From a virus, in IMG/VR virus record IMGVR_UViG_3300006847_000019, positions 1-37,653 of that record: DNA of 37,653 nt, one strand, 5' to 3'. The translations under genes were made by a program, and so were the position numbers. Positions 39 through 13,882 of the stretch are shown here, piece by piece. The notes under the pieces are model-generated. The model searched no databases. It had not been told where the DNA came from and saw only the letters and a list, made by a program, of their open reading frames with translations. Positions within the stretch are counted from its first letter, which is position 1, and the number at the start of each line of letters is the position of its first letter.

Positions 39-2273
39 TCATTTTCTAATTCTTATGCCGCGCCAACCCTGATACCCGTGCCGGAGCGAGGCGGGTACGG
101 GACGCTCAAGAGCGGGGACCAAAGTGTGGCCAACAGCCTCATAAAAGCGCATGGACGACATTGCAGAGAACCCATTCTGCGCTGCCCACATTGCATATTC
201 GGCGTAGACGTCATTCCTAGAAATGAATTCGGGTAAGCCAGTCCACTCTATTCTTTCGGCTATGAACGCTCGCAACGGGTCAGCCTCGGCACGGAACCTA
301 TCCGTGGCTTCCTTCACGGTTACCGGCAAGACGAAATGACCGCGCTCAATGACGTTCTTCAGCCGCTCTACCGCCATTCTCAGCAACCCTGGTATCTCGG
401 GTGCCAATCTGTGAATAAGGTGGATGTCGGGATTTGTGAACGTCTTGGGGAAGGGCAGCACCAGCCAGCGTGAGAAGAAAGCGTCTGTGGTGTCCGCCGT
501 GCGAGGCAAGGCATTGAAGGAAGCAATCATGAGGGCACGGCACACAAACGTAAACGGGTCACGGTTTTTATGCTCGACCATCATCCAATCTCCCCCAGTA
601 AGTTGTTTAAAGCGTTCCGTTGACTTGAAGATACGAGGATCGACGTCCCCGGCCAGATTTGCAAGCTTTCCGTGTATCTGGGCAGCAGCGAATCTATTAT
701 CATCGATTGCTTGGGGTGTAACGGCAGACACATTGTTATGTCCGGCAAGCATTGTAGCGAGTTTGAGGAAGGTCGATTTTCCATTTCGTCCAGTGCCGTA
801 AAGCAATATGGCTTTGTGCAAGGGATTAGCGTTGTATAACATGTATCCCAATACTTCGAGAGCAAATTCTGTTGCGTCATAAGCGAATACATCCCTCAGC
901 CAATCTAGGATCAAGGGGCACTCAGCGTCCTCATCCCAAGCAACCGGAATCCTAATGGTGGTAACGATATTGGCGTTGTGTGGCTCAAGTCTCCCTGTGC
1001 GCCAGTCCAATAGACCATTGGGTAGGTTGAGGTAACGGGTGTCCTCTCGCTCATCGGTGATGAACGGTTCCCTATGCTCTACAAAGGTTTTCACCATGGT
1101 CGCGTGGTTAGGTCGAGCACGTTCCTTCAAAAGTTTTTGAACCCTACGGTAAATCTCAGACTCACCGTCCGGTGACCACACACCGTCATAGTGCCGGTAA
1201 ATAGCTTTGCCCGGACCAGGCTCTAGCCTGCCTGTGCGCTCCACTGCCCTTTGCAGCGAAATAGCTTTGATGCCGTGCTTGCCGTCAAAGAATCGGTCAG
1301 GGTCTTTATCTCTTTCCTCTTCCTCGATCAGGCAAGGGTCACCGATCCGTACCCGCTCGATTGCGGTTTTTTCAATGGCACCAACGCATGCCCTACCCCA
1401 CTCAGCCTTTGATTCGTAGCCGGACCTACGGCCGGTTTCGGCAGCCTGCTCTAGGAAGGTTTCCTTGAAGCGCTTGAGAGCTTGGTACCCGCCAAGGTGG
1501 CCATGGGAAATTTCAGCCAGGATTGCCCACACACCGTTTGTCATGGCGTCATGCATTCCGCCCAGTGCAGCATGTTTCCTCAAAAGCCGTTGGTGTTGGG
1601 ACACTACCCGCCTTAGCTCAGGGCACAGCTTCCCCTTACCGTGTTCAGTCAGCCATAACCGGGTATCCAGTTGAGCGCGCTCGTATGGAACGAATTTGCC
1701 CCGTCTGGTTTCCCGTAGGAGACGGTTGCTGACGATGTTTAATTCCTCAAGGGTGGGGATGTGCCAGGCCACGCTTTTACGTGGGCTCAGAAATCGATAC
1801 AGCTTGCCGGAAGGGTGCACGCTAGGCGGTACCACCAGGTAACGATGATGGTGTTGCAGTACATCGACGCCAGCAACAATTTTCCCTGGCCATGTTCGAT
1901 CGTTCGGTGTTTGGTACCAGAGGTGATACCGGTTCTCGCGTCCGCTTGAGCTTGCCCATGTGGTCGGGATGTCACCAAGGTAGTCGGTAAGCCGTTTCTC
2001 TGCCTCAGCCCCATCCACATCGAGTACGACCATGTTGGAAGGAATCACGATCCCGATGTTTCTCGGTTCATCATCCTGTAACCATCCGGCAACCAACTGT
2101 GTATGCTGTTCGAAATTGTGTTCGATACCTCCGGTCACGTTCTTAGGTGGAGGTGACTTCCGCCCAAGGGGCAGGGGAAACGGCATGTATCCAGCAGAAA
2201 GGTAATCCTCAGCGGCTAAGTGCCAAGGCGAGATTTGGTCGTGTTGGCTGCTCGTGCTATTCTGGCCGCCCAC
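39..2273 (-). CDS. Primase-polymerase / SF3 helicase (replicative, D5/P4 type)
   Basis: A 744-residue two-domain replication protein. The N-terminal part looks like an archaeo-eukaryotic primase/prim-pol: a DVDG acidic motif near residue 86, RYHLWYQ near 115, and a third motif around GVDVLQ...VVPPSVHPSG. The C-terminal part is a superfamily 3 helicase as in P4 alpha and poxvirus D5: Walker A GTGRNGKS near 493, Walker B LAGDVD near 540, and motif C LMIASFN near 581. In this family the protein unwinds the template and primes synthesis, so it probably works with the split polymerase upstream. I chose a GTG start because AAAGGA lies 12 nt upstream. The frame opens further, to a TTG at 2336, but that start has no ribosome binding site. 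It is the last complete gene before the window edge. Helicase assignment is very sure, primase domain sure, start less so. Confidence 0.93.
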   Translation of the reverse strand: MGGQNSTSSQHDQISPWHLAAEDYLSAGYMPFPLPLGRKSPPPKNVTGGIEHNFEQHTQLVAGWLQDDEPRNIGIVIPSNMVVLDVDGAEAEKRLTDYLGDIPTTWASSSGRENRYHLWYQTPNDRTWPGKIVAGVDVLQHHHRYLVVPPSVHPSGKLYRFLSPRKSVAWHIPTLEELNIVSNRLLRETRRGKFVPYERAQLDTRLWLTEHGKGKLCPELRRVVSQHQRLLRKHAALGGMHDAMTNGVWAILAEISHGHLGGYQALKRFKETFLEQAAETGRRSGYESKAEWGRACVGAIEKTAIERVRIGDPCLIEEEERDKDPDRFFDGKHGIKAISLQRAVERTGRLEPGPGKAIYRHYDGVWSPDGESEIYRRVQKLLKERARPNHATMVKTFVEHREPFITDEREDTRYLNLPNGLLDWRTGRLEPHNANIVTTIRIPVAWDEDAECPLILDWLRDVFAYDATEFALEVLGYMLYNANPLHKAILLYGTGRNGKSTFLKLATMLAGHNNVSAVTPQAIDDNRFAAAQIHGKLANLAGDVDPRIFKSTERFKQLTGGDWMMVEHKNRDPFTFVCRALMIASFNALPRTADTTDAFFSRWLVLPFPKTFTNPDIHLIHRLAPEIPGLLRMAVERLKNVIERGHFVLPVTVKEATDRFRAEADPLRAFIAERIEWTGLPEFISRNDVYAEYAMWAAQNGFSAMSSMRFYEAVGHTLVPALERPVPASLRHGYQGWRGIRIRK

Positions 2274-2357
2274 GGTGAGAGCACATCCTTTCGAAAAAAC
2301 TGAAGAGCTGTAGAGGAATCCTCCGGACCTAGGCAACCCGGGGGATTTCTTTATGTG

Positions 2358-3408: not shown

Positions 3409-3579
3409 TTATCCACCAATCTCGTTGATGAGCCTGAGAACTTCTCTGCCAACCTGCACAGGGTTGCCTAGCTCAATGACAAGCCCTGCATATATGGGAG
3501 TGTCCGTTGCTTCCGTTGGGGCTTCAGTTGCTTTTCTAGTAATGGCCGCTTTTCGTTTAGCTGTATTAGCTTTTCCCAT
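3409..3579 (-). CDS. Hypothetical 56-aa protein overlapping the resolvase gene
   Basis: A short protein with a basic, Ala/Thr-rich N-terminus (KRKAAITRKATEAPTEAT) and a possible amphipathic C-terminal helix (VGREVLRLINEIGG). It begins inside the 3' end of the RuvC-like gene in another frame and overlaps it by about 110 nt. The start is supported by GGACGA upstream and by close spacing to the next gene. Function unknown. The long overlap makes it less certain than its neighbours. Confidence 0.5.
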   Translation of the reverse strand: MGKANTAKRKAAITRKATEAPTEATDTPIYAGLVIELGNPVQVGREVLRLINEIGG

Positions 3580-4100
3580 GTGACTTCGTCCGCCCTCTGT
3601 TTCAGTCGCTTCAGGTAGGTAACACCATGCTGTACCGCTGCATAGGCATCTTTGCCCCGTACCGGCCATAGTTTCATTCGTTTGAGCCTAGGCTTGGTGA
3701 CACCCGTTCGAAGAGCACGATTTTGATAGGCCAACGGTAGTTGAAACCCTACCGCTAATTGATATTCCAGAATTGCGTTCAGTCGAGTCGGTATCAGCAA
3801 ATCCTTACCGCCGATAAGCTGTGTCAGGTCGAAGTCCTCAGTGACTATCTCGTATCTTGCTGTGAACAGCTTCCCGTTCCTGTAGCGGCTTTTACGGATC
3901 ATATCCAGTGCTGCCCTCACCTTGTCATGCTCTGTGCCCTCAAACTCGCCACAGCGCCATCCTAGAAGGTTGCTCAGCACCTTCTCTCGTGGGTGACTGA
4001 ACGCACGGATGTGCACAACAAAGTGAGCCCATCCCATGACTCCACCAGGATCAAAAGCGATTACATGCAACTCATTCTTTCGGCTCGTCACCCTTGCCAT
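3468..4100 (-). CDS. RuvC-like Holliday junction resolvase
   Basis: About 210 residues with an RNase H-fold nuclease pattern. FDPGGVMGW near residue 17 gives the first catalytic Asp. An acidic residue in IVTED (about 88) ends a beta strand. GKDAYAAVQHG near 151-158 gives the C-terminal Asp and His, as in RuvC-type phage resolvases. Such enzymes cut branched DNA before packaging or during recombination. The start is uncertain: an ATG at 4100 has AAAGG 9 nt upstream, while a TTG just before HVIAFDPGG would give the short N-terminus typical of the family. Its 5' end overlaps the 91-aa gene and its 3' end overlaps the 56-aa gene. It belongs to the replication cluster. Confidence 0.85.
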   Translation of the reverse strand: MARVTSRKNELHVIAFDPGGVMGWAHFVVHIRAFSHPREKVLSNLLGWRCGEFEGTEHDKVRAALDMIRKSRYRNGKLFTARYEIVTEDFDLTQLIGGKDLLIPTRLNAILEYQLAVGFQLPLAYQNRALRTGVTKPRLKRMKLWPVRGKDAYAAVQHGVTYLKRLKQRADEVTWEKLIQLNEKRPLLEKQLKPQRKQRTLPYMQGLSLS

Positions 4101-4347
4101 CCTTGATTGCCTTTGAAATGAGGGCAGCGAGGTCGGGTGACATAACCACAAGCTTGTTCAGTGCTTCGCCTAGGACGTAGAACGTTGTCCCGCACTCACA
4201 ATGGTGTATGATCAGTCCTGCAATGGTGGTGTGAAGCCCTGAACACTCGTGGGTCTGAGTCACCGGGTGTAGCAGGGAGACGTTGGGATCCTTAAACACA
4301 ATTCCCATATCACTAGTGACGATTACCGCGATTCGCTTACAGGTCAT
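4072..4347 (-). CDS. Hypothetical 91-aa protein with HHCECG motif
   Basis: Not assignable to a family. It contains HTTIAGLIIHHCECGTTFY around residues 38-57, whose His and Cys residues could bind a metal ion, followed by a helical C-terminus with an acidic end. GGAG stands 9 nt before the ATG. The gene follows the C-terminal polymerase piece by about 35 nt, and the resolvase gene starts inside its 3' end. It is probably part of the same polycistron. Possible zinc binding is inferred from residue pattern only. Confidence 0.75.
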   Translation of the reverse strand: MTCKRIAVIVTSDMGIVFKDPNVSLLHPVTQTHECSGLHTTIAGLIIHHCECGTTFYVLGEALNKLVVMSPDLAALISKAIKDGKGDEPKE

Positions 4348-4382: not shown

Positions 4383-5231
4383 TCATGCTGCCCTCATGTA
4401 TCCATGTCCCCAAGAGTCGCCGTACACTTTGCCGCTAGCCGTAATCGGCACGCCTCGGAATTGGGTGCTCATAACCTCGCCGTACCGTCTGGCAACGCGC
4501 TTGGCTTTCCACCTTGGAGCCTGGCCTAGCAATTCATCGTGGATGGGAAGTAGAACGGTTGACGCTAGCTCAGGATCGGCCATGACAGCGATCAGCCCAT
4601 CACACATGATATCCCTTGCTGTGGACTGTATTTCGTAGTTCACGACCCTGTAAGCCTTCATCAATTCGACCGGCAACCTACGGCCGTAATCCGTTGTGAT
4701 GTAACCGACTTTCCACTCCATCAGGTTGTTAATGCGGTGCCGCACCTTGGCTATTGCCAACCTGCCTGACGGAGTGTCTTGCCGGTATTCGAACATCTCT
4801 GAACGTAGTGAGCGGTAAAGCCTGTATTCGTTTGGGGTCAGTGCACCGCGAATCAGCTTGTCTTGCTGCTGGCGCTTGTACCTTGTGAGCGCGGGGAATT
4901 CTTCGCGGTATTGCACGATGATTTCTTGAGCCACTTCAAAGGGAATACCCGCCTGCTGTGAGAGCGTGAATGCCCCGCCTCCATAGAGCCAACCGAAGTT
5001 GACATTTTTGGTATAGCGGTACTGGTCTGGCGTGTAATCCTCTCCGAAGAGTTTTACGGCTGCAATCTTGTGAAGAGACTCCCCGCGCTCAGCCGCTTCT
5101 ATAAGTGCTTGCTCCCTTGCCAAAGCGGCTGCCACACGCAATTCAATTTGGTCATAGTCACACGAGATGATGGCGTGACCAACCTCTGCGACGATGGCTC
5201 GCCTGACTGCCGCACTGGAAAGGAGTTTCAT
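4383..5231 (-). CDS. polA: Family A DNA polymerase, C-terminal piece (palm/fingers)
   Basis: 282 residues carrying the catalytic half of a PolI/T7-type polymerase. Motif A is SCDYDQIELR with the metal-binding Asp near residue 25. Motif B (O-helix) is YRYTKNVNFGWLYG near 71-84. Motif C is HDE at 231-233. It lacks the exonuclease, thumb and TGR elements, which are on a separate gene ending at 6831. The first residues, SSAAVRRAIVAE, match the stretch that directly follows the QQLP segment in intact polymerases, so the split falls just before motif A. The ATG overlaps the stop of the 60-aa gene by 4 nt (ATGA), which implies coupled translation. All catalytic motifs are present, so it is probably active together with the N-terminal piece rather than a relic. 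Confidence 0.95.
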   Translation of the reverse strand: MKLLSSAAVRRAIVAEVGHAIISCDYDQIELRVAAALAREQALIEAAERGESLHKIAAVKLFGEDYTPDQYRYTKNVNFGWLYGGGAFTLSQQAGIPFEVAQEIIVQYREEFPALTRYKRQQQDKLIRGALTPNEYRLYRSLRSEMFEYRQDTPSGRLAIAKVRHRINNLMEWKVGYITTDYGRRLPVELMKAYRVVNYEIQSTARDIMCDGLIAVMADPELASTVLLPIHDELLGQAPRWKAKRVARRYGEVMSTQFRGVPITASGKVYGDSWGHGYMRAA

Positions 5232-5410
5232 GATTGCTCACAGCATTGGCATATGTGCTCTCTAGGGTGCTCTTTATAGTCCGAGCAAAGGTGTATGAAC
5301 CCGGTAGTGTCAAACCACAGATGGTTACAGTAGATCAGCAGTGAAGGGTCAGAGGTGACTCTAACGTCACGCCAGTCAACGCCTGCACATAGCTCTAGTT
5401 TCAGCTTCAC
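5228..5410 (-). CDS. Cysteine/histidine-rich 60-aa protein inside the polymerase insertion
   Basis: A small protein with possible zinc ligands: C8, CNH near 28-30, HLC near 40 and HICQCC near the end. No family recognised. It starts at a GTG sharing 4 nt with the stop of the 38-aa gene (GTGA) and ends sharing 4 nt with the start of the polymerase C-terminal piece. The overlaps on both sides make it a real, translated link in the chain. A small metal-binding adaptor is possible but unproven. Confidence 0.75.
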   Translation of the reverse strand: MKLKLELCAGVDWRDVRVTSDPSLLIYCNHLWFDTTGFIHLCSDYKEHPREHICQCCEQS

Positions 5411-5523
5411 TTGTCATACCAACCTTTGTGATCTAGCTCTGGATTCCCGTATCGCATAACGGGGCAGCATCTTTCGCCGCAATCAATGCAGCGAAACAGC
5501 CATCGCCAGATATGCAATCTCAT
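5407..5523 (-). CDS. 38-aa Cys-rich microprotein inside the polymerase insertion
   Basis: The sequence starts MRLHIWRWLF, continues with CIDCGERCC (residues 12-20) and ends GWYDK. The four cysteines form a knuckle-like CxxC...CC pattern. A strong purine-rich site (GGGGGGAAA) lies just upstream of the ATG, and the stop overlaps the GTG of the next gene. Function unknown. The cysteines and the overlap are the evidence that it is a gene. Confidence 0.6.
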   Translation of the reverse strand: MRLHIWRWLFRCIDCGERCCPVMRYGNPELDHKGWYDK

Positions 5524-5536
5524 TTCATTTCCCCCC

Positions 5537-5914
5537 TCAGTTCATGCAAGCGCGGTTGTAGGAATGGAAGAGTGCGATTTGTATTCTGGTGTTTGGGTCC
5601 AGTTGCTGGAAGAAATTCATTCGAGACATCCTGCCCATTGCCAGCATGAGCACTTCAAGATGACGCATTTCATCTACGCGATTCTGGTAACGGCGAAACC
5701 TCTCATAGTAGGAAGTAGGTCGACTCTTGGCGAAGTACCCTGTGTCGGATATCCGTGCGACACGCTCACTGAGGATCCCGTCCAGTGTGAAGCTCGCATC
5801 CTGCAATCCGCCTAGCTTCTCTCTAGCTTCATCACTGTACTTGGGGTCAGTCAATGACCAACTGAACTTACTGAGATCAATTGGCTCACCATCCTCTGGA
5901 ATGAATTCAATCAT
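5537..5914 (-). CDS. Hypothetical 125-aa protein inside the polymerase insertion
   Basis: Function not recognised. The N-terminus is acidic (EFIPEDGEPIDL). The middle, from about residue 35, holds charged helical stretches (EAREKLGGL, YYERFRRYQNRVDEMRHLEVLMLAMGRM in segments), so it is probably all-alpha. GGAGG lies 1 nt before the ATG, and a weaker upstream stretch may also serve. Its ATG overlaps the stop of the 48-aa gene. It is the largest gene of the insertion after the SLOG protein. I see no nuclease (HNH, GIY-YIG, LAGLIDADG) motif, which argues against a homing endonuclease. Confidence 0.8.
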   Translation of the reverse strand: MIEFIPEDGEPIDLSKFSWSLTDPKYSDEAREKLGGLQDASFTLDGILSERVARISDTGYFAKSRPTSYYERFRRYQNRVDEMRHLEVLMLAMGRMSRMNFFQQLDPNTRIQIALFHSYNRACMN

Positions 5915-6053
5915 TCCTCCAAACCTCCATCTTTAGCTTCCAACCGTTGCGCCAGAGGAAGTATTCATGTGTTCGTGTTTTCAAACGCAAACACCATCCA
6001 ACTACTAGTGCAGGATCACGGCACAGTTTGATGTCAATCATCTTCGTCATCAT
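5907..6053 (-). CDS. 48-aa Trp-rich microprotein inside the polymerase insertion
   Basis: The sequence includes MIDIKLCRDPALVVGW near the start and EYFLWRNGWKLKMEVWRND at the end. Four tryptophans and several basic residues suggest a compact beta-type miniprotein. It overlaps the preceding 55-aa gene by 20 nt and the following 125-aa gene by 8 nt. Two adjacent ATGs (6053 and 6050) could start it; the sequence does not decide between them. No function recognised. Confidence 0.6.
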   Translation of the reverse strand: MMTKMIDIKLCRDPALVVGWCLRLKTRTHEYFLWRNGWKLKMEVWRND

Positions 6054-6201
6054 CTTTCACCTTCGTTACTTTCCCGTCGTCGCTCACTTCATACTTGCCT
6101 TCCCTCAGCAAGCGCAAAGCATGGACGTAAGCGATTTCTAGGTGTGCCATGAGGATTCGCGCCAATCGCTTCTCTTTACTAGCTAGAACCATTTCAGTCA
6201 T
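6034..6201 (-). CDS. 55-aa helical microprotein with acidic tail
   Basis: Residues 5-35 form a likely helix (SKEKRLARIL, HLEIAYVHALRLLREG). A short strand and a strongly acidic end (KDDDEDD) follow. The ATG overlaps the stop codon of the SLOG gene by 8 nt; a second ATG three codons later is an alternative start. The 3' end overlaps the 48-aa gene. Function unknown. It is supported mainly by the uninterrupted frame and the coupled arrangement. Confidence 0.55.
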   Translation of the reverse strand: MTEMVLASKEKRLARILMAHLEIAYVHALRLLREGKYEVSDDGKVTKVKDDDEDD

Positions 6202-6682
6202 TCCAATTTAGGCTTGTGATGCCTAGGCTTTGACGATGTTCGGCCATCGGGTAGAACTGTGCTTGTCCCAATGGATTGACAAGCCAGAAAGGTATTCCTT
6301 CCTTCTTCGCGTATCGAACGGTTGCCCACGTGCCGGAACGCATTTGTGCTTGATTTGATGTGAAACCCTGAACTGTTGCAATAAGGATAGTGCTTTCACT
6401 GACGATGATTGTGTTACGTTCCAATGCTGGCAAGGGGACCATGACTAGATCACTTTTAGTCTTGGCAAGCCAACGCTCACTAACGTTTGAGGCGGGGTAA
6501 GCGTATGTAAGGAATCCAAGGGCTTTGGCTATCTTGAAGGCTTCCTCATCGCTTCCCGTACAATCGCCATGGCGTAGTGTGTTGGCACTATTTATTGTCC
6601 AATGGATCATGAACAATGCCTGCACCTTGGCGCGTGCGCTAGCCGACATTCCGTGTCTTGACCCTGTGAAACCTATTTCCAT
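6194..6682 (-). CDS. SLOG-family (DprA/LOG-like) Rossmann protein
   Basis: 162 residues with the look of an SLOG-superfamily nucleotide-binding fold: GFTGSRHGM at residues 3-11, HGDCTGSDEEAFKIAKALG in the middle, a strand ending IVSESTILIAT, and the typical RSGTWATVRYAKKEGIPFWLV near 125-150. SLOG proteins bind or process nucleotides or nucleotide-derived ligands and include DprA and LOG. The exact ligand cannot be read here. The start at MEIGFTGS follows AAAGG with 6-nt spacing and overlaps the stop of the 49-aa gene (TGATG). The frame extends upstream, but only over neighbouring genes. It sits between the two polymerase pieces, so a replication or anti-defence role is conceivable. Confidence 0.85.
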   Translation of the reverse strand: MEIGFTGSRHGMSASARAKVQALFMIHWTINSANTLRHGDCTGSDEEAFKIAKALGFLTYAYPASNVSERWLAKTKSDLVMVPLPALERNTIIVSESTILIATVQGFTSNQAQMRSGTWATVRYAKKEGIPFWLVNPLGQAQFYPMAEHRQSLGITSLNWND

Positions 6683-6831
6683 CACTGGCCTTTCTTCGAT
6701 AGTGCGATTTTCAGTACCATGATGCTCATCTTGATCCCCGTCAGAACGCCTAACTGTCCTCTCGGGTTCTTCCAATGCTCGGCTTTGATTGTCATGAACA
6801 GGGATTCGAGCAGTCTTATAGCTTCCTCCAT
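6682..6831 (-). CDS. 49-aa microprotein directly after the polymerase N-terminal piece
   Basis: A basic, mostly helical protein (EEAIRLLESLFMTIKAEHW, then KNPRGQLGVLTG, IKMSIMVLKIALSKK). Its ATG overlaps the stop of the N-terminal polymerase gene (TGATG), with AAGGA 9 nt upstream. Its stop overlaps the ATG of the SLOG gene in the same way. The position and coupling suggest it could help hold the two polymerase halves, but nothing in the sequence proves that. Confidence 0.65.
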   Translation of the reverse strand: MEEAIRLLESLFMTIKAEHWKNPRGQLGVLTGIKMSIMVLKIALSKKGQ

Positions 6832-8009
6832 CACTCTTGATCCTTAGTCGGTAGTTGCTGGAAAATACCGGCACTCATGCGACCCGTTCTAGCCGCTAGA
6901 GAATTGATTGACGGGTGGACCCTGCCCTGACTATCCCTTGCCCTCAACATCCCCTCTGCGTAAACCTGAGCGCGTTTGTTGAGCCTTCTAGCCGTGAGTA
7001 TGTAGCGGACCAACTTCCGCACTGGACGGTTGCCCGTTTCCGCCAAGCTTTCCAGAACCGTGTTATCCATTTGCCACTTGCCGGATGGGGTTTTTAGTCT
7101 CAGCTTGGCGCCTAGCTCTAAAAGGGTTACGGCAATTTGTTGGCCGGAATTTATGTTATTGCAACCCAAGACAGCTGCCAGCTCTATCAGATGGTCGGCA
7201 CGCCGCGTGAGTGCGGCTTGGTATTGCTGAAGGTACCGCACATCTACGAGCATGCCCCGACGTTGCAACCGGTCACAGAGCAAGTCAATTTGTAAATCCC
7301 TGTCGTACAAACCATTGGCACGACTGTAGGTGGTCCCATTGAAGCGCCAGAGCCGATATGTGAGTATGGGGTCGGCACCAGCGTAGGCAATGTAGGTAGG
7401 GTGCTTGATGTCTTGCATTGCCCAGCCTTCAGATATCAAAGCCTTGCGTACCTTGGGTTGTCCCTTGCGAGGTCCGGATTTGTAATACTCACCTGGCATC
7501 GGCACCGTAAGTTGCTTAAAGCCAAGCTTGAGCGCCACTTCCCACTTACCGGCCGCTGGATCGATATGCGCTGTGCATTGCTCTTTCAGTCCAAGGTCTG
7601 CGCCGCCTTCCTCCGCCTTTCGTGGCTCGCGATGGTGAGCTGTGATGTAAGCCTCGTACTTGCAAACCACGTCGGACTCATAGCCGAGATACGCGTCTAC
7701 ACAACGCACGTCATGCGGTCCGTTGTATCCAATCCAGTCGATGCCGAGTGACCAGATATTTGTAATTGTCTTGCGCCACTTGGCGGGAATGACGAATGCT
7801 CGAATGTCGTTACCAATCTGAAAGGTTCGCAGCCTCCAATGGGGTAGGTAGCAGTCGAGTCCTGTTGATTCTGTGTCCATGCCCAGTTCTTGCCCGACGA
7901 ACCGTTTCGCCCAACGCAGAGCGCGTTTGGCATCGTCTTTGTTCTCCACAAAGTGAAAATAGATTTGGTCACCCTGTAGCGTATCCTTAATGGTTATCAA
8001 GCCACTCAC
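6831..8009 (-). CDS. polA: Family A DNA polymerase, N-terminal piece (3'-5' exonuclease and thumb)
   Basis: 392 residues. The proofreading exonuclease is complete: DTE at 45-47 (Exo I), NGPHD at 96-100 (Exo II) and YAGAD at 209-213 (Exo III). The thumb and start of the palm follow, ending with the conserved SLAARTGRMSAGIFQQLP segment and then TKDQE and a stop. In intact family members this segment runs straight into the motif A strand, which here is on the gene starting at 5231. Together the two pieces give 674 residues, close to full length. The GTG start lies inside the end of the glycosylase gene and has only a weak upstream site, so coupled translation is likely. A TTG three codons later is an alternative. 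Confidence 0.95.
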   Translation of the reverse strand: MSGLITIKDTLQGDQIYFHFVENKDDAKRALRWAKRFVGQELGMDTESTGLDCYLPHWRLRTFQIGNDIRAFVIPAKWRKTITNIWSLGIDWIGYNGPHDVRCVDAYLGYESDVVCKYEAYITAHHREPRKAEEGGADLGLKEQCTAHIDPAAGKWEVALKLGFKQLTVPMPGEYYKSGPRKGQPKVRKALISEGWAMQDIKHPTYIAYAGADPILTYRLWRFNGTTYSRANGLYDRDLQIDLLCDRLQRRGMLVDVRYLQQYQAALTRRADHLIELAAVLGCNNINSGQQIAVTLLELGAKLRLKTPSGKWQMDNTVLESLAETGNRPVRKLVRYILTARRLNKRAQVYAEGMLRARDSQGRVHPSINSLAARTGRMSAGIFQQLPTKDQE

Positions 8010-8583
8010 CTAGCTTCGACCAATGTGTTTCCATGACTGGACGGAGCTTCGGAAATTTGATTCCGTCTTTGGGATGGAACATAGGCCAAACCCACACCCA
8101 ACCAAAGAATGTCATGCGCTTGAATGGAAATCCTGCTGACTTTGATATGTCCCGCCATTCACCCATGCACGCTGAGAATGCCAGCATGCCAACGGGAATG
8201 AGCACCATTGGGTTGTCTACCGCGCACCACTCCTGTCTGAGGTAGGGTCGCCATAGTTCTATTGCCTCCCATGGCATACCGCTTGATCGGTATTTGCTGA
8301 CCAGGGTTAGCCAGCAGTTCGGCCGGTATTGCTTGCCTTCATTGAAATAACTGTGCAGGTTGGCAAGCTCCATGAGCTGGCGGAGGATTGCCCCAATGTC
8401 ATCTGTGAACGGTCTGCCATTCACAACGTCTGTCGCACTTGGTGAGCTGCCCACGATGAAGGCGGAAGCATTAGCTTCAGACCCTTCCCCCGGAACCAAT
8501 TTGGCAGGTTGCCAATGGTAAAACGCTTTGTCCCGTAGGATTCTGTCGTAAACGTCGTCAACGTTAAGCGCTATTCCACCCAT
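7987..8583 (-). CDS. Uracil-DNA glycosylase-superfamily protein
   Basis: 198 residues resembling family 4/5-type uracil-DNA glycosylases. AFIVGSSPSATD at 41-52 followed by NGRPFTDDIGAILRQLM corresponds to the G-E-x-P-G...GxPFxGxxGxLL region. A C-terminal HPKDG after FFGWVWVWPMF resembles the HP-containing motif 2. Such enzymes excise uracil from DNA. The canonical Glu of motif 1 is replaced by Ser (GSSPS), so the activity or base specificity may differ. The gene overlaps the start of the N-terminal polymerase gene, and its own start overlaps the preceding gene, so the proteins are made together. Family assignment is fairly sure, catalytic activity less so. Confidence 0.8.
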   Translation of the reverse strand: MGGIALNVDDVYDRILRDKAFYHWQPAKLVPGEGSEANASAFIVGSSPSATDVVNGRPFTDDIGAILRQLMELANLHSYFNEGKQYRPNCWLTLVSKYRSSGMPWEAIELWRPYLRQEWCAVDNPMVLIPVGMLAFSACMGEWRDISKSAGFPFKRMTFFGWVWVWPMFHPKDGIKFPKLRPVMETHWSKLGEWLDNH

Positions 8584-9693: not shown

Positions 9694-10026
9694 TCATGAA
9701 CGCGGATTCTTTATTGCATCTTCAATCTCTTCGAATGTGTGATCAAGTGGCTCTTCCGGAAGTGTCCTCGCCATGAGCTTGAGCCACGCTGCGAAGCGCC
9801 AGGCCTGTTGCCTGGTAGTGAACTCCGGATAGCGAATCGGCCGGATGGTGCCAGCTTGGCCACCCAAACCGAATTCGTTCGTGTTATCGACTTCGATCGG
9901 TTGTGTGTCGATGAGCGCGGCTGTCTCTTCGGCTTGTGCGGCAACGCCGGTCAGCATGTCGCTTGCCAGATCTTCTCCTGTGGTCTTGAGATCGATTTCA
10001 GGCTTTCCCTTGTCTGCCTTGGCCAT
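9694..10026 (-). CDS. Hypothetical 110-aa protein
   Basis: The first half is charged and probably disordered (KADKGKPEIDLKTTGEDL). The second half contains YPEFTTRQQAWRFAAWLKLMA followed by FEEIEDAIKNP, a helical pattern I associate with small actinophage proteins of unknown role. Its ATG overlaps the stop of the ssDNA-binding-like gene (TGATG). About 120 nt without an obvious gene follow it. No enzymatic motif seen. Confidence 0.8.
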   Translation of the reverse strand: MAKADKGKPEIDLKTTGEDLASDMLTGVAAQAEETAALIDTQPIEVDNTNEFGLGGQAGTIRPIRYPEFTTRQQAWRFAAWLKLMARTLPEEPLDHTFEEIEDAIKNPRS

Positions 10027-10577
10027 CAGTCTTCGTCCTCTTCTTCGTCATCGTCTTCGGATTCCTCATCGTCTTCTTCGTAGTCTTCCTCATCATCTTC
10101 TTCGGCATCATCGATCGCTCCGACCCACCCAATTTCCTTGGGGTACTTGTCGGCGTTGTCACCCCGATTGTCTTGGAGCTGACCAAGAATGAGCGTCTGG
10201 CCATCGTTCACCCACGGTCCGATGCGCCTGATGTTACCTTCCTGGTCTGTCTTGGTGCGTTTCTTGAAGTCGGCTTCAGTAACGCCAACGGCGTCAAGGA
10301 AGGGAACATATTGAAAGGGTGTGGTGTCGGCAATGACCATGAACTTCATCATGGTGTATCCGGAAAACTTCTTTTCCGACTTGTCACGCGGGTCAAGGCG
10401 CAGCGACACACGCAATTGAGGGTTCTTCTTCTTTCCACCAGAGACGTAAACCGCCTTGGTGACTTTCCATTGGTAAACGCCGTTGTCAGGAAGCTTGCCA
10501 GTGTAAGGCTTGTACTGGCTTTCCCGGTCGTAATCGTCGATGACTCCTTTAGAGAGTCCCCAGTCCACGGTAGGCAC
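10026..10577 (-). CDS. Putative ssDNA-binding protein with acidic C-terminal tail (DUF669-like)
   Basis: 183 residues. The N-terminal domain (YKPYTGKLPDNGVYQWKVTKA, NPQLRVSLRLDPRD, FSGYTMMKFMVIA) looks like an OB-type beta fold like that of DUF669/ssDNA-binding phage proteins. The last 30 residues are almost only Asp and Glu, as in SSB and T7 gp2.5, where such tails recruit partner proteins. It lies directly downstream of the Sak4-like ATPase gene, a common pairing in phage recombination modules. The GTG start follows AAAGGA by 7 nt. Binding to ssDNA is inferred from tail and neighbours; the fold is not proven. Confidence 0.7.
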   Translation of the reverse strand: MPTVDWGLSKGVIDDYDRESQYKPYTGKLPDNGVYQWKVTKAVYVSGGKKKNPQLRVSLRLDPRDKSEKKFSGYTMMKFMVIADTTPFQYVPFLDAVGVTEADFKKRTKTDQEGNIRRIGPWVNDGQTLILGQLQDNRGDNADKYPKEIGWVGAIDDAEEDDEEDYEEDDEESEDDDEEEDED

Positions 10578-13127: not shown

Positions 13128-13838
13128 TCAGAAAACGAAATCGTCGTCGTCTTCCTTCGGCTTTTTCTTGCCTTTCTTGGCTGTGTCAGCCTTCTTCCCT
13201 TTGGAAGTTGCCTTCTTTGCTGGTGCGGCTTTCTTGACAGGCTTGTCAGCCTTCTTTGCGGGTTTCTTGGCCGGAGCTTTCTTCGCTACAGCCTTCTTTC
13301 CCTTGGATTTCTTAGGCGGGGCAGGCTCTTCGTCGTCCTCTTCCTCGTCATCCTCTTCTTCTTCGTCGTCCTCGTCTTCGTCGTCTTCCTCTTCGTCCTC
13401 TTCCTCGTCATCGTCTTCTGTGTCTTCGTCGTCCTCTTCCTCATCATCCTCTTCGAAGTCTTCGTCCTCATCCTCTTCGAAGTCTTCCTCTTCGTCGTCC
13501 TCATCCTTGGACTTCTTCTTTTTCGACTTCTTCCCCTTGGGTGCGTCGTCCTCATCCTTGGCCTTGGGCTTGGGACCGCGCTTCTGAACGCCGTGCTTCT
13601 CCCGCATTTCCTCAAGGAAATCACTTTCCATGAAGGCCGACCGGCTCGTGAGCGCCAACCGGATACCCGCCAGGAAGGCTGCCTTCTTCGAGTCCGCCGA
13701 AGCTGGATCGTAGCCAACCTCCGTAGTGATCCAGCGGGCAAACCACTTCTGATACTGAGTGGCTTCCTTGTCCGCCAGGGCAGTGAGTTTCGGGTCACGC
13801 TTCGGCTTTTTACTTGCCTTGGGGTTTGTCTTCGCCAT
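13128..13838 (-). CDS. Polyacidic / histone H1-like tail protein, 236 aa
   Basis: Three parts. Residues 1-90 form a compact domain (LTALADKEATQYQKWFARW, AAFLAGIRLALTSRSAFMESDFL in segments). About residues 105-170 are nearly pure Asp and Glu broken by a few Phe and Thr. The C-terminal 65 residues are Lys/Ala/Pro repeats (KKAPAKKPAKKA and similar) like histone H1 tails, ending in DDDDFVF. The start is fixed by AGGAGG 10 nt before the ATG; a longer frame lacks a site. It has its own probable promoter upstream. A DNA-compacting or DNA-mimic role is an inference from charge only. Confidence 0.82.
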   Translation of the reverse strand: MAKTNPKASKKPKRDPKLTALADKEATQYQKWFARWITTEVGYDPASADSKKAAFLAGIRLALTSRSAFMESDFLEEMREKHGVQKRGPKPKAKDEDDAPKGKKSKKKKSKDEDDEEEDFEEDEDEDFEEDDEEEDDEDTEDDDEEEDEEEDDEDEDDEEEEDDEEEDDEEPAPPKKSKGKKAVAKKAPAKKPAKKADKPVKKAAPAKKATSKGKKADTAKKGKKKPKEDDDDFVF

Positions 13839-13882
13839 CGGGGTACATCCTCCTAAAATCGGTTTGGTGCAGGTGGGCAACG

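What the first reader, a model, noticed from the sequence alone, without database searches (positions are those of the whole stretch)
4383..8009. Family A DNA polymerase split in front of motif A by seven small genes
Seen: an N-terminal piece (392 aa, all three exonuclease motifs, TGRM...QQLP) and a C-terminal piece (282 aa, motifs A, B and C) whose sequences are contiguous in intact family members. About 1.6 kb separate them, filled with ORFs of 49, 162, 55, 48, 125, 38 and 60 aa. Almost every junction overlaps (TGATG, ATGA, GTGA). Family knowledge: splits of PolA genes are usually caused by introns, inteins or homing endonucleases. None is visible: no nuclease motifs, no intein residues at the ends, and no non-coding space for a ribozyme. 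Inference: the enzyme is reassembled from two polypeptides, and the insertion is a stable cassette, perhaps containing assembly factors. I do not recall this exact arrangement.
Basis: partly seen in the sequence, partly recalled or inferred. Interest (0 to 1): 0.88.

Follow-up and report, generated by a model that had tools for sequence, protein, structure and literature searches.

The report
Phage DNA polymerase in two pieces
A group of uncultured phages makes its DNA-copying enzyme as two separate proteins cut just before the catalytic core, an ancient and stable arrangement with one to seven unrelated small genes lodged between the halves.

Summary
PF00476 matches the window twice: profile positions 3-137 (N-piece) and 137-380 (C-piece), complementary, with no other PolA on the contig. 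It is not an assembly artefact. IMG/VR scans found 13 further contigs with the break at the same residue, all forming one clade with the window (100/100 support; 42 intact PolAs fall outside). Another 246 PolA loci are unbroken. Exo motifs I-III and the TGRM/TARM arginine lie in the N-piece, and motifs A, B and C in the C-piece. Both halves are under purifying selection (pN/pS about 0.2). No intron, intein or nuclease was found, and the gaps are about 96% coding. Best reading: one old gene fission, with two chains that re-associate. The insert is not a stable cassette: it ranges from 266 to 1599 nt with changing genes. One small gene family ('MSRDEL') sits in 10 of 12 gaps but is absent from the window. 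The C-piece has a roughly 40-residue extra helical pair seen in no intact homologue. Published precedents exist: split PolA in OM43 phages (PMC10580990) and an active split PolB in Aeromonas phage 25 (PMC2988022).

The parts
6831..8009 (-). PolA N-piece (392 aa, GTG start): DEDD 3'-5' exonuclease, thumb and first palm part, ending TGRMSAGIFQQLPTKDQE*
4383..5231 (-). PolA C-piece (282 aa, ATG overlapping the preceding stop): palm and fingers, motifs A, B and C
4713..4853 (-). approximate place of the clade-specific two-helix insertion inside the C-piece (about residues 127-173), absent from intact PolAs
6682..6831 (-). insert ORF 1, 49 aa, small helical 'GVLTGIKM' family; homologues in the gaps of L003, L019, L018 and L272
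6194..6682 (-). insert ORF 2, 162 aa, weak SLOG/Rossmann-type (phrog_289 E=5e-6); homologue in the L003 gap; L020 gap carries a YspA-type SLOG protein hitting the same phrog
6034..6201 (-). insert ORF 3, 55 aa, no family; the NUMOD4 hit (E=0.015) is below Pfam's cut-off and covers 17 residues
5907..6053 (-). insert ORF 4, 48 aa, no family
5537..5914 (-). insert ORF 5, 125 aa, no family
5407..5523 (-). insert ORF 6, 38 aa, four Cys (CIDCGERCC)
5228..5410 (-). insert ORF 7, 60 aa, Cys/His-rich C-terminus; weak similarity to the last gap ORF of L019 (E=0.013); stop overlaps the C-piece start (ATGA)
7987..8583 (-). uracil-DNA glycosylase superfamily gene upstream of the N-piece, conserved neighbour across the clade
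3468..4151 (-). 227-aa gene downstream of the C-piece, conserved neighbour in 10 clade loci, no Pfam match

Best explanation
This is a family A DNA polymerase whose gene was cut once, in the common ancestor of this phage lineage, in the surface loop between ...QQLP and the strand leading into motif A. The phage makes two polypeptides from one operon: exonuclease + thumb + first palm segment, and the rest of the palm + fingers. They fold separately and then associate. Neither half holds a complete polymerase site: the TGRM/TARM arginine is in the first chain, and the metal-binding aspartates of motifs A and C are in the second. The free junction between the halves then became an ordinary place for small phage genes to come and go. 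Shown: break, clade, single origin, conserved motifs, selection. Inferred: association and activity of the two chains.
For: Complementary PF00476 halves and no other PolA in the window or in the 11 other clade records holding both halves. Fourteen contigs in all show the N-piece stop at the same residue; 12 also hold the C-piece, always starting at the same residue. 246 other PolA loci are fused. The split rows form one clade, 100/100. Exo and pol motifs are intact throughout. pN/pS is about 0.2 in both halves. Models: N-piece pLDDT 92.5, but its last 22 residues, the palm strand that needs the other half, fall to 42-66; C-piece 94.2. Foldseek gives phage G20c Pol I/Klenow for N, Taq/Bst for C. 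Aeromonas phage 25 gp43A and gp43B co-purify and polymerise (PMC2988022).
Against: No experiment and no two-chain model (the tool folds single chains). All contigs are metagenomic and may be incomplete, so a further polymerase elsewhere in these genomes is not excluded. A primase-polymerase (Prim-Pol/D5) is also present.
Confidence: 0.87

Rival explanations
1. The gap is an intron (group I or II) or other spliced element carrying genes, and a continuous polymerase mRNA is made.
For: Phage polymerase genes are classic intron hosts; in Kayvirus (L014) an intron with an HNH gene interrupts PolA just upstream of motif A. The OM43 authors also raised an intron (PMC10580990).
Against: No Rfam match in the window even at E<=10 and none but tRNAs in 11 relatives. 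The gap is about 96% coding, only 266 nt in L021, and differs in sequence between members. The N-piece always ends in a proper stop, and the C-piece start overlaps the preceding gene in nearly all members, in changing frames.
Confidence: 0.04
2. Sequencing or assembly error, or chimeric contig.
For: All members are metagenome contigs.
Against: Same break in 14 contigs from many samples at 44-76% identity; single clade.
Confidence: 0.01
3. The halves no longer cooperate: the N-piece works as a free 3'-5' exonuclease and the C-piece is decaying or has another role, while the host or Prim-Pol replicates the phage.
For: The N-piece exonuclease domain is complete and folds well by itself; the contig also codes for a Prim-Pol/D5 protein.
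Against: The C-piece is better conserved (54-63%) than the N-piece (44-51%) against the members with both halves, keeps motifs A, B and C, and has pN/pS about 0.2. The N-piece keeps thumb and TGRM/TARM, useless to a free exonuclease.
Confidence: 0.07
4. Trans-splicing through a split intein joins the two chains.
For: Split polymerase genes elsewhere use split inteins, e.g. PolB of jumbo phage MIJ3 (PMC6892783).
Against: The N-piece ends within about 20 residues after QQLP and the C-piece starts 8 residues before the conserved VRR/IRR: no room for intein halves.
Confidence: 0.01

Closest known systems
Split PolA of OM43 phages MEP401/MEP402 (gp13-gp14-gp15; PMC10580990)
   Same: Family A polymerase in two ORFs, exonuclease + N-terminal Pol part and C-terminal Pol part, with a small ORF of unknown function between; seen in most related genomes.
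   Different: Broken about 15 residues further downstream, on a very long separate tree branch, so most likely an independent fission; one 77-aa intervening gene (236-nt gap) against 1 to 7 here; no clear homology of gp14 to the gap genes (shuffle control).
Split PolB gp43A/gp43B of Aeromonas phage 25 (reviewed in PMC2988022)
   Same: Replicative phage polymerase made of two polypeptides; there the two were shown to co-purify with polymerase activity.
   Different: Family B, with a seg-type homing endonuclease or an untranslated spacer in the gap; here family A and no nuclease.
Split B-type polymerase of Methanothermobacter thermautotrophicus (Kelman et al. 1999, cited in PMC3984812)
   Same: Two-polypeptide DNA polymerase without intein (my knowledge).
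   Different: Archaeal chromosome, family B.
Intact PolA of Arthrobacter, Microbacterium, Mycobacterium and Rhodococcus phages
   Same: Same enzyme type, 32-38% identity to the halves.
   Different: One gene; no two-helix insertion between motifs B and C.

Membership tests
Family A DNA polymerase (PolA) | PF00476 domain with motifs A, B and C | tested here: met
   met only by the two polypeptides together
[quoted passage not shown]
   DTES, NGPHD, YAGADP conserved; PF01612 itself sub-threshold (E=0.006)
Family A DNA polymerase (PolA) | polymerase activity | not testable with these tools
   no experiment
Two-polypeptide (split) DNA polymerase | halves encoded separately, complementary, no intact copy | tested here: met
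   limited by possibly incomplete contigs
Two-polypeptide (split) DNA polymerase | split conserved across a lineage | tested here: met
   14 contigs, one clade 100/100
Two-polypeptide (split) DNA polymerase | halves bind and are active together | not testable with these tools
   single-chain models only
Split PolA lineage of OM43 phages (MEP401) | same break position and common origin of the split | tested here: not met
   break about 15 residues apart; MEP401 branch far outside the window's clade
Intron-interrupted polymerase gene | recognisable ribozyme in the gap | tested here: not met
Homing-endonuclease-split gene | HNH, GIY-YIG or LAGLIDADG nuclease gene in the gap | tested here: not met
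   no such Pfam/PHROG match in the window inserts or in the ten relatives' proteins scanned
Split intein | intein halves at the ends of the pieces | tested here: not met
   ends are flush with the family

The most novel reading that the evidence does not exclude
The lineage uses a three-part polymerase: the two PolA halves plus the small helical 'MSRDEL' protein encoded between them in 10 of 12 members, with the C-piece's extra helical pair as the new docking surface. The window's lineage would have replaced or lost the third part.
Probability: 0.15. Interest if true: 0.78.

Novelty: new variant of a known kind. Interest (0 to 1): 0.62.

Why it matters
It shows that a family A polymerase can be permanently broken beside its catalytic core and kept that way over deep divergence, with other genes moving into the break. 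That gives a natural split site for engineering two-part polymerases and a testable case of how a monomeric enzyme becomes a multi-subunit one. It also warns annotators: each half alone can look like a truncated or dead polymerase. A second split PolA lineage, cut at a nearby but different site, suggests this region tolerates fission repeatedly.

Tried and rejected
Single-sequence scans of IMG/VR found only L003; alignments were needed. GTDB genomes gave no host: best match 30%. Phage megablast: no match. Apparent similarity of MEP401 gp14 and of window ORF 3 to the 'MSRDEL' family did not beat shuffled sequences, rejected. L183 (a MAG) looked like another split but appears to be a deletion/frameshift in one contig, not counted. 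'MSRDEL' protein: no match in cultured phages; in IMG/VR only in clade members. Surveys of phage PolA (PMC11348598, PMC9069017, PMC6302109) do not discuss split PolA. The automatic gene tiling joins window ORFs 1 and 2; the seven-ORF reading is.

Full report
OBSERVATION. The window is a whole IMG/VR virus record of 37,653 bases, a tailed phage by its terminase-, portal-, capsid- and tape-measure-like ORFs (my reading). The N-piece (6831-8009, minus strand) and C-piece (4383-5231) are real ORFs. PF00476 matches profile 3-137 in the first and 137-380 in the second, and nothing else on the record. In intact phage PolAs the corresponding residues follow each other directly (QQLPSGD-WKVRRA). The seven small ORFs and their overlaps are as described; only one junction leaves a 13-nt spacer.

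IT IS NOT UNIQUE. A single-sequence scan of IMG/VR brought one relative (L003, N-piece 76% identical, stop at the same residue, contig ending before the C-piece). Alignment-based scans brought more. With the window there are now 12 contigs holding both halves (window, L018, L019, L020, L021, L097, L272, L273, L274, L275, L277, L203), and two with the N-piece end only (L003, and L278, which gives the same values as L277 and is probably the same virus). L022 is cut before the break. In every one the N-piece ends within about 20 residues after the conserved QQLP. The C-piece aligns from its first residue (typically MKLLSSxxIRR) in all 12. A gap in similarity sets this group apart: 44% or more N-piece identity inside, 36% or less outside. 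Of the other loci, 246 carry both halves in one ORF and one (L183) is a likely frameshifted MAG contig.

ONE ORIGIN. A tree of the joined halves puts the 13 split rows in one clade (100/100), with 42 intact rows outside. Records of the 11 relatives with both halves hold the two pieces and no other PF00476 protein.

BOTH HALVES ARE KEPT. Exo I-III and the T(G/A/T)R motif are in all N-pieces; motifs A, B and C are in the C-pieces, with small variation where my search strings failed to match. pN/pS is about 0.2 for both halves in close pairs, with synonymous sites near saturation. By established knowledge of Klenow and Bst, the arginine of the TGR motif contacts the primer terminus, and the aspartates of motifs A and C bind the metals. 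The polymerase site is therefore shared between the chains (inference from homology).

STRUCTURE. AlphaFold2 gives the N-piece 92.5 mean pLDDT, but its last 22 residues (TGRM...QQLP and tail) only 42-66. That is what one expects of a palm strand whose partner is on the other chain. The C-piece reaches 94.2. Foldseek's best matches are phage G20c Pol I and Klenow for N, and Taq/Bst large fragments for C. The C-piece has an extra pair of helices (about residues 133-171): the motif B to motif C distance is 152 residues in all 14 clade hits measured (some from the same contig), against 105-129 in 228 intact proteins. So the clade has a second derived trait; a role in docking is speculation.

THE INSERT. 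Gaps run from 266 nt (one gene) to 1599 nt (the window, seven genes) and are about 96% coding overall. The C-piece start overlaps the preceding ORF in 10 of 12 loci by the automatic tiling, and in L019 and L203 by an alternative ORF; this suggests translational coupling (inference). Gene content changes. The window shares ORFs 1 and 2 with L003, ORF 1 with L272 and, weakly, L018/L019. The L020 gap carries a YspA-type SLOG protein (PF10686) matching the same phrog as window ORF 2; L273 and L274 carry a VapB-like gene. One 75-aa helical family, here called 'MSRDEL', is in 10 of 12 gaps, usually first after the N-piece. It was found nowhere else in the loci held, the phage collection (one member as query) or IMG/VR (one pattern), but is missing from the window and L274. 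So the split is stable and the insert is not.

MECHANISM. No ribozyme, intein ends or nuclease gene was found. The best explanation is gene fission followed by gene accretion, the enzyme being reassembled from two chains. How the fission happened is unknown. A lost intron or homing element is possible: in Kayvirus an intron with an HNH gene interrupts PolA just upstream of motif A.

WHAT IS KNOWN. OM43 phages have a PolA in two ORFs around one small ORF (PMC10580990), cut about 15 residues downstream of the site here and most likely an independent event. Split gp43 of Aeromonas phage 25 co-purifies and is active (PMC2988022). Three surveys of phage PolA checked do not discuss splits. Hence: a new variant of a known kind, with the two-chain activity still to be proven.

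Noticed in passing
window 4713-4853 (-), about C-piece residues 127-173: Extra helical pair between motifs B and C, in all split-clade C-pieces measured and in none of 228 intact PolAs.
   Followed up: partly
L018 7762-7986, L019 7386-7619, L020 7185-7430, L021 7207-7464, L097 5051-5434, L272 7191-7562, L273 7194-7421, L275 7430-7672, L277 7182-7436, L203 5503-5865: Small helical 'MSRDEL' gene family lying only between the PolA halves of this clade; no known family.
   Followed up: partly
L014 (Staphylococcus phage IME-SA118) 3861-5070: A gap with an HNH gene interrupts PolA just upstream of motif A, near the position of the split seen here.
   Followed up: no
L273 7418-7807, L274 7184-7525: VapB-like (PF23719) gene lodged between the polymerase halves.
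   Followed up: no
window 13128-13880 and 10026-10577 (-): Two ORFs with long Asp/Glu-rich low-complexity runs in the replication region.
   Followed up: no
L183 about 898-1006: PolA in a MAG contig broken near the same place with overlapping frames and missing residues; probably a deletion or assembly error.
   Followed up: partly
window 39-2336 (-): Prim-Pol + D5-type primase/helicase (765 aa) at the contig end; a second nucleotide-polymerising enzyme on this phage.
   Followed up: no
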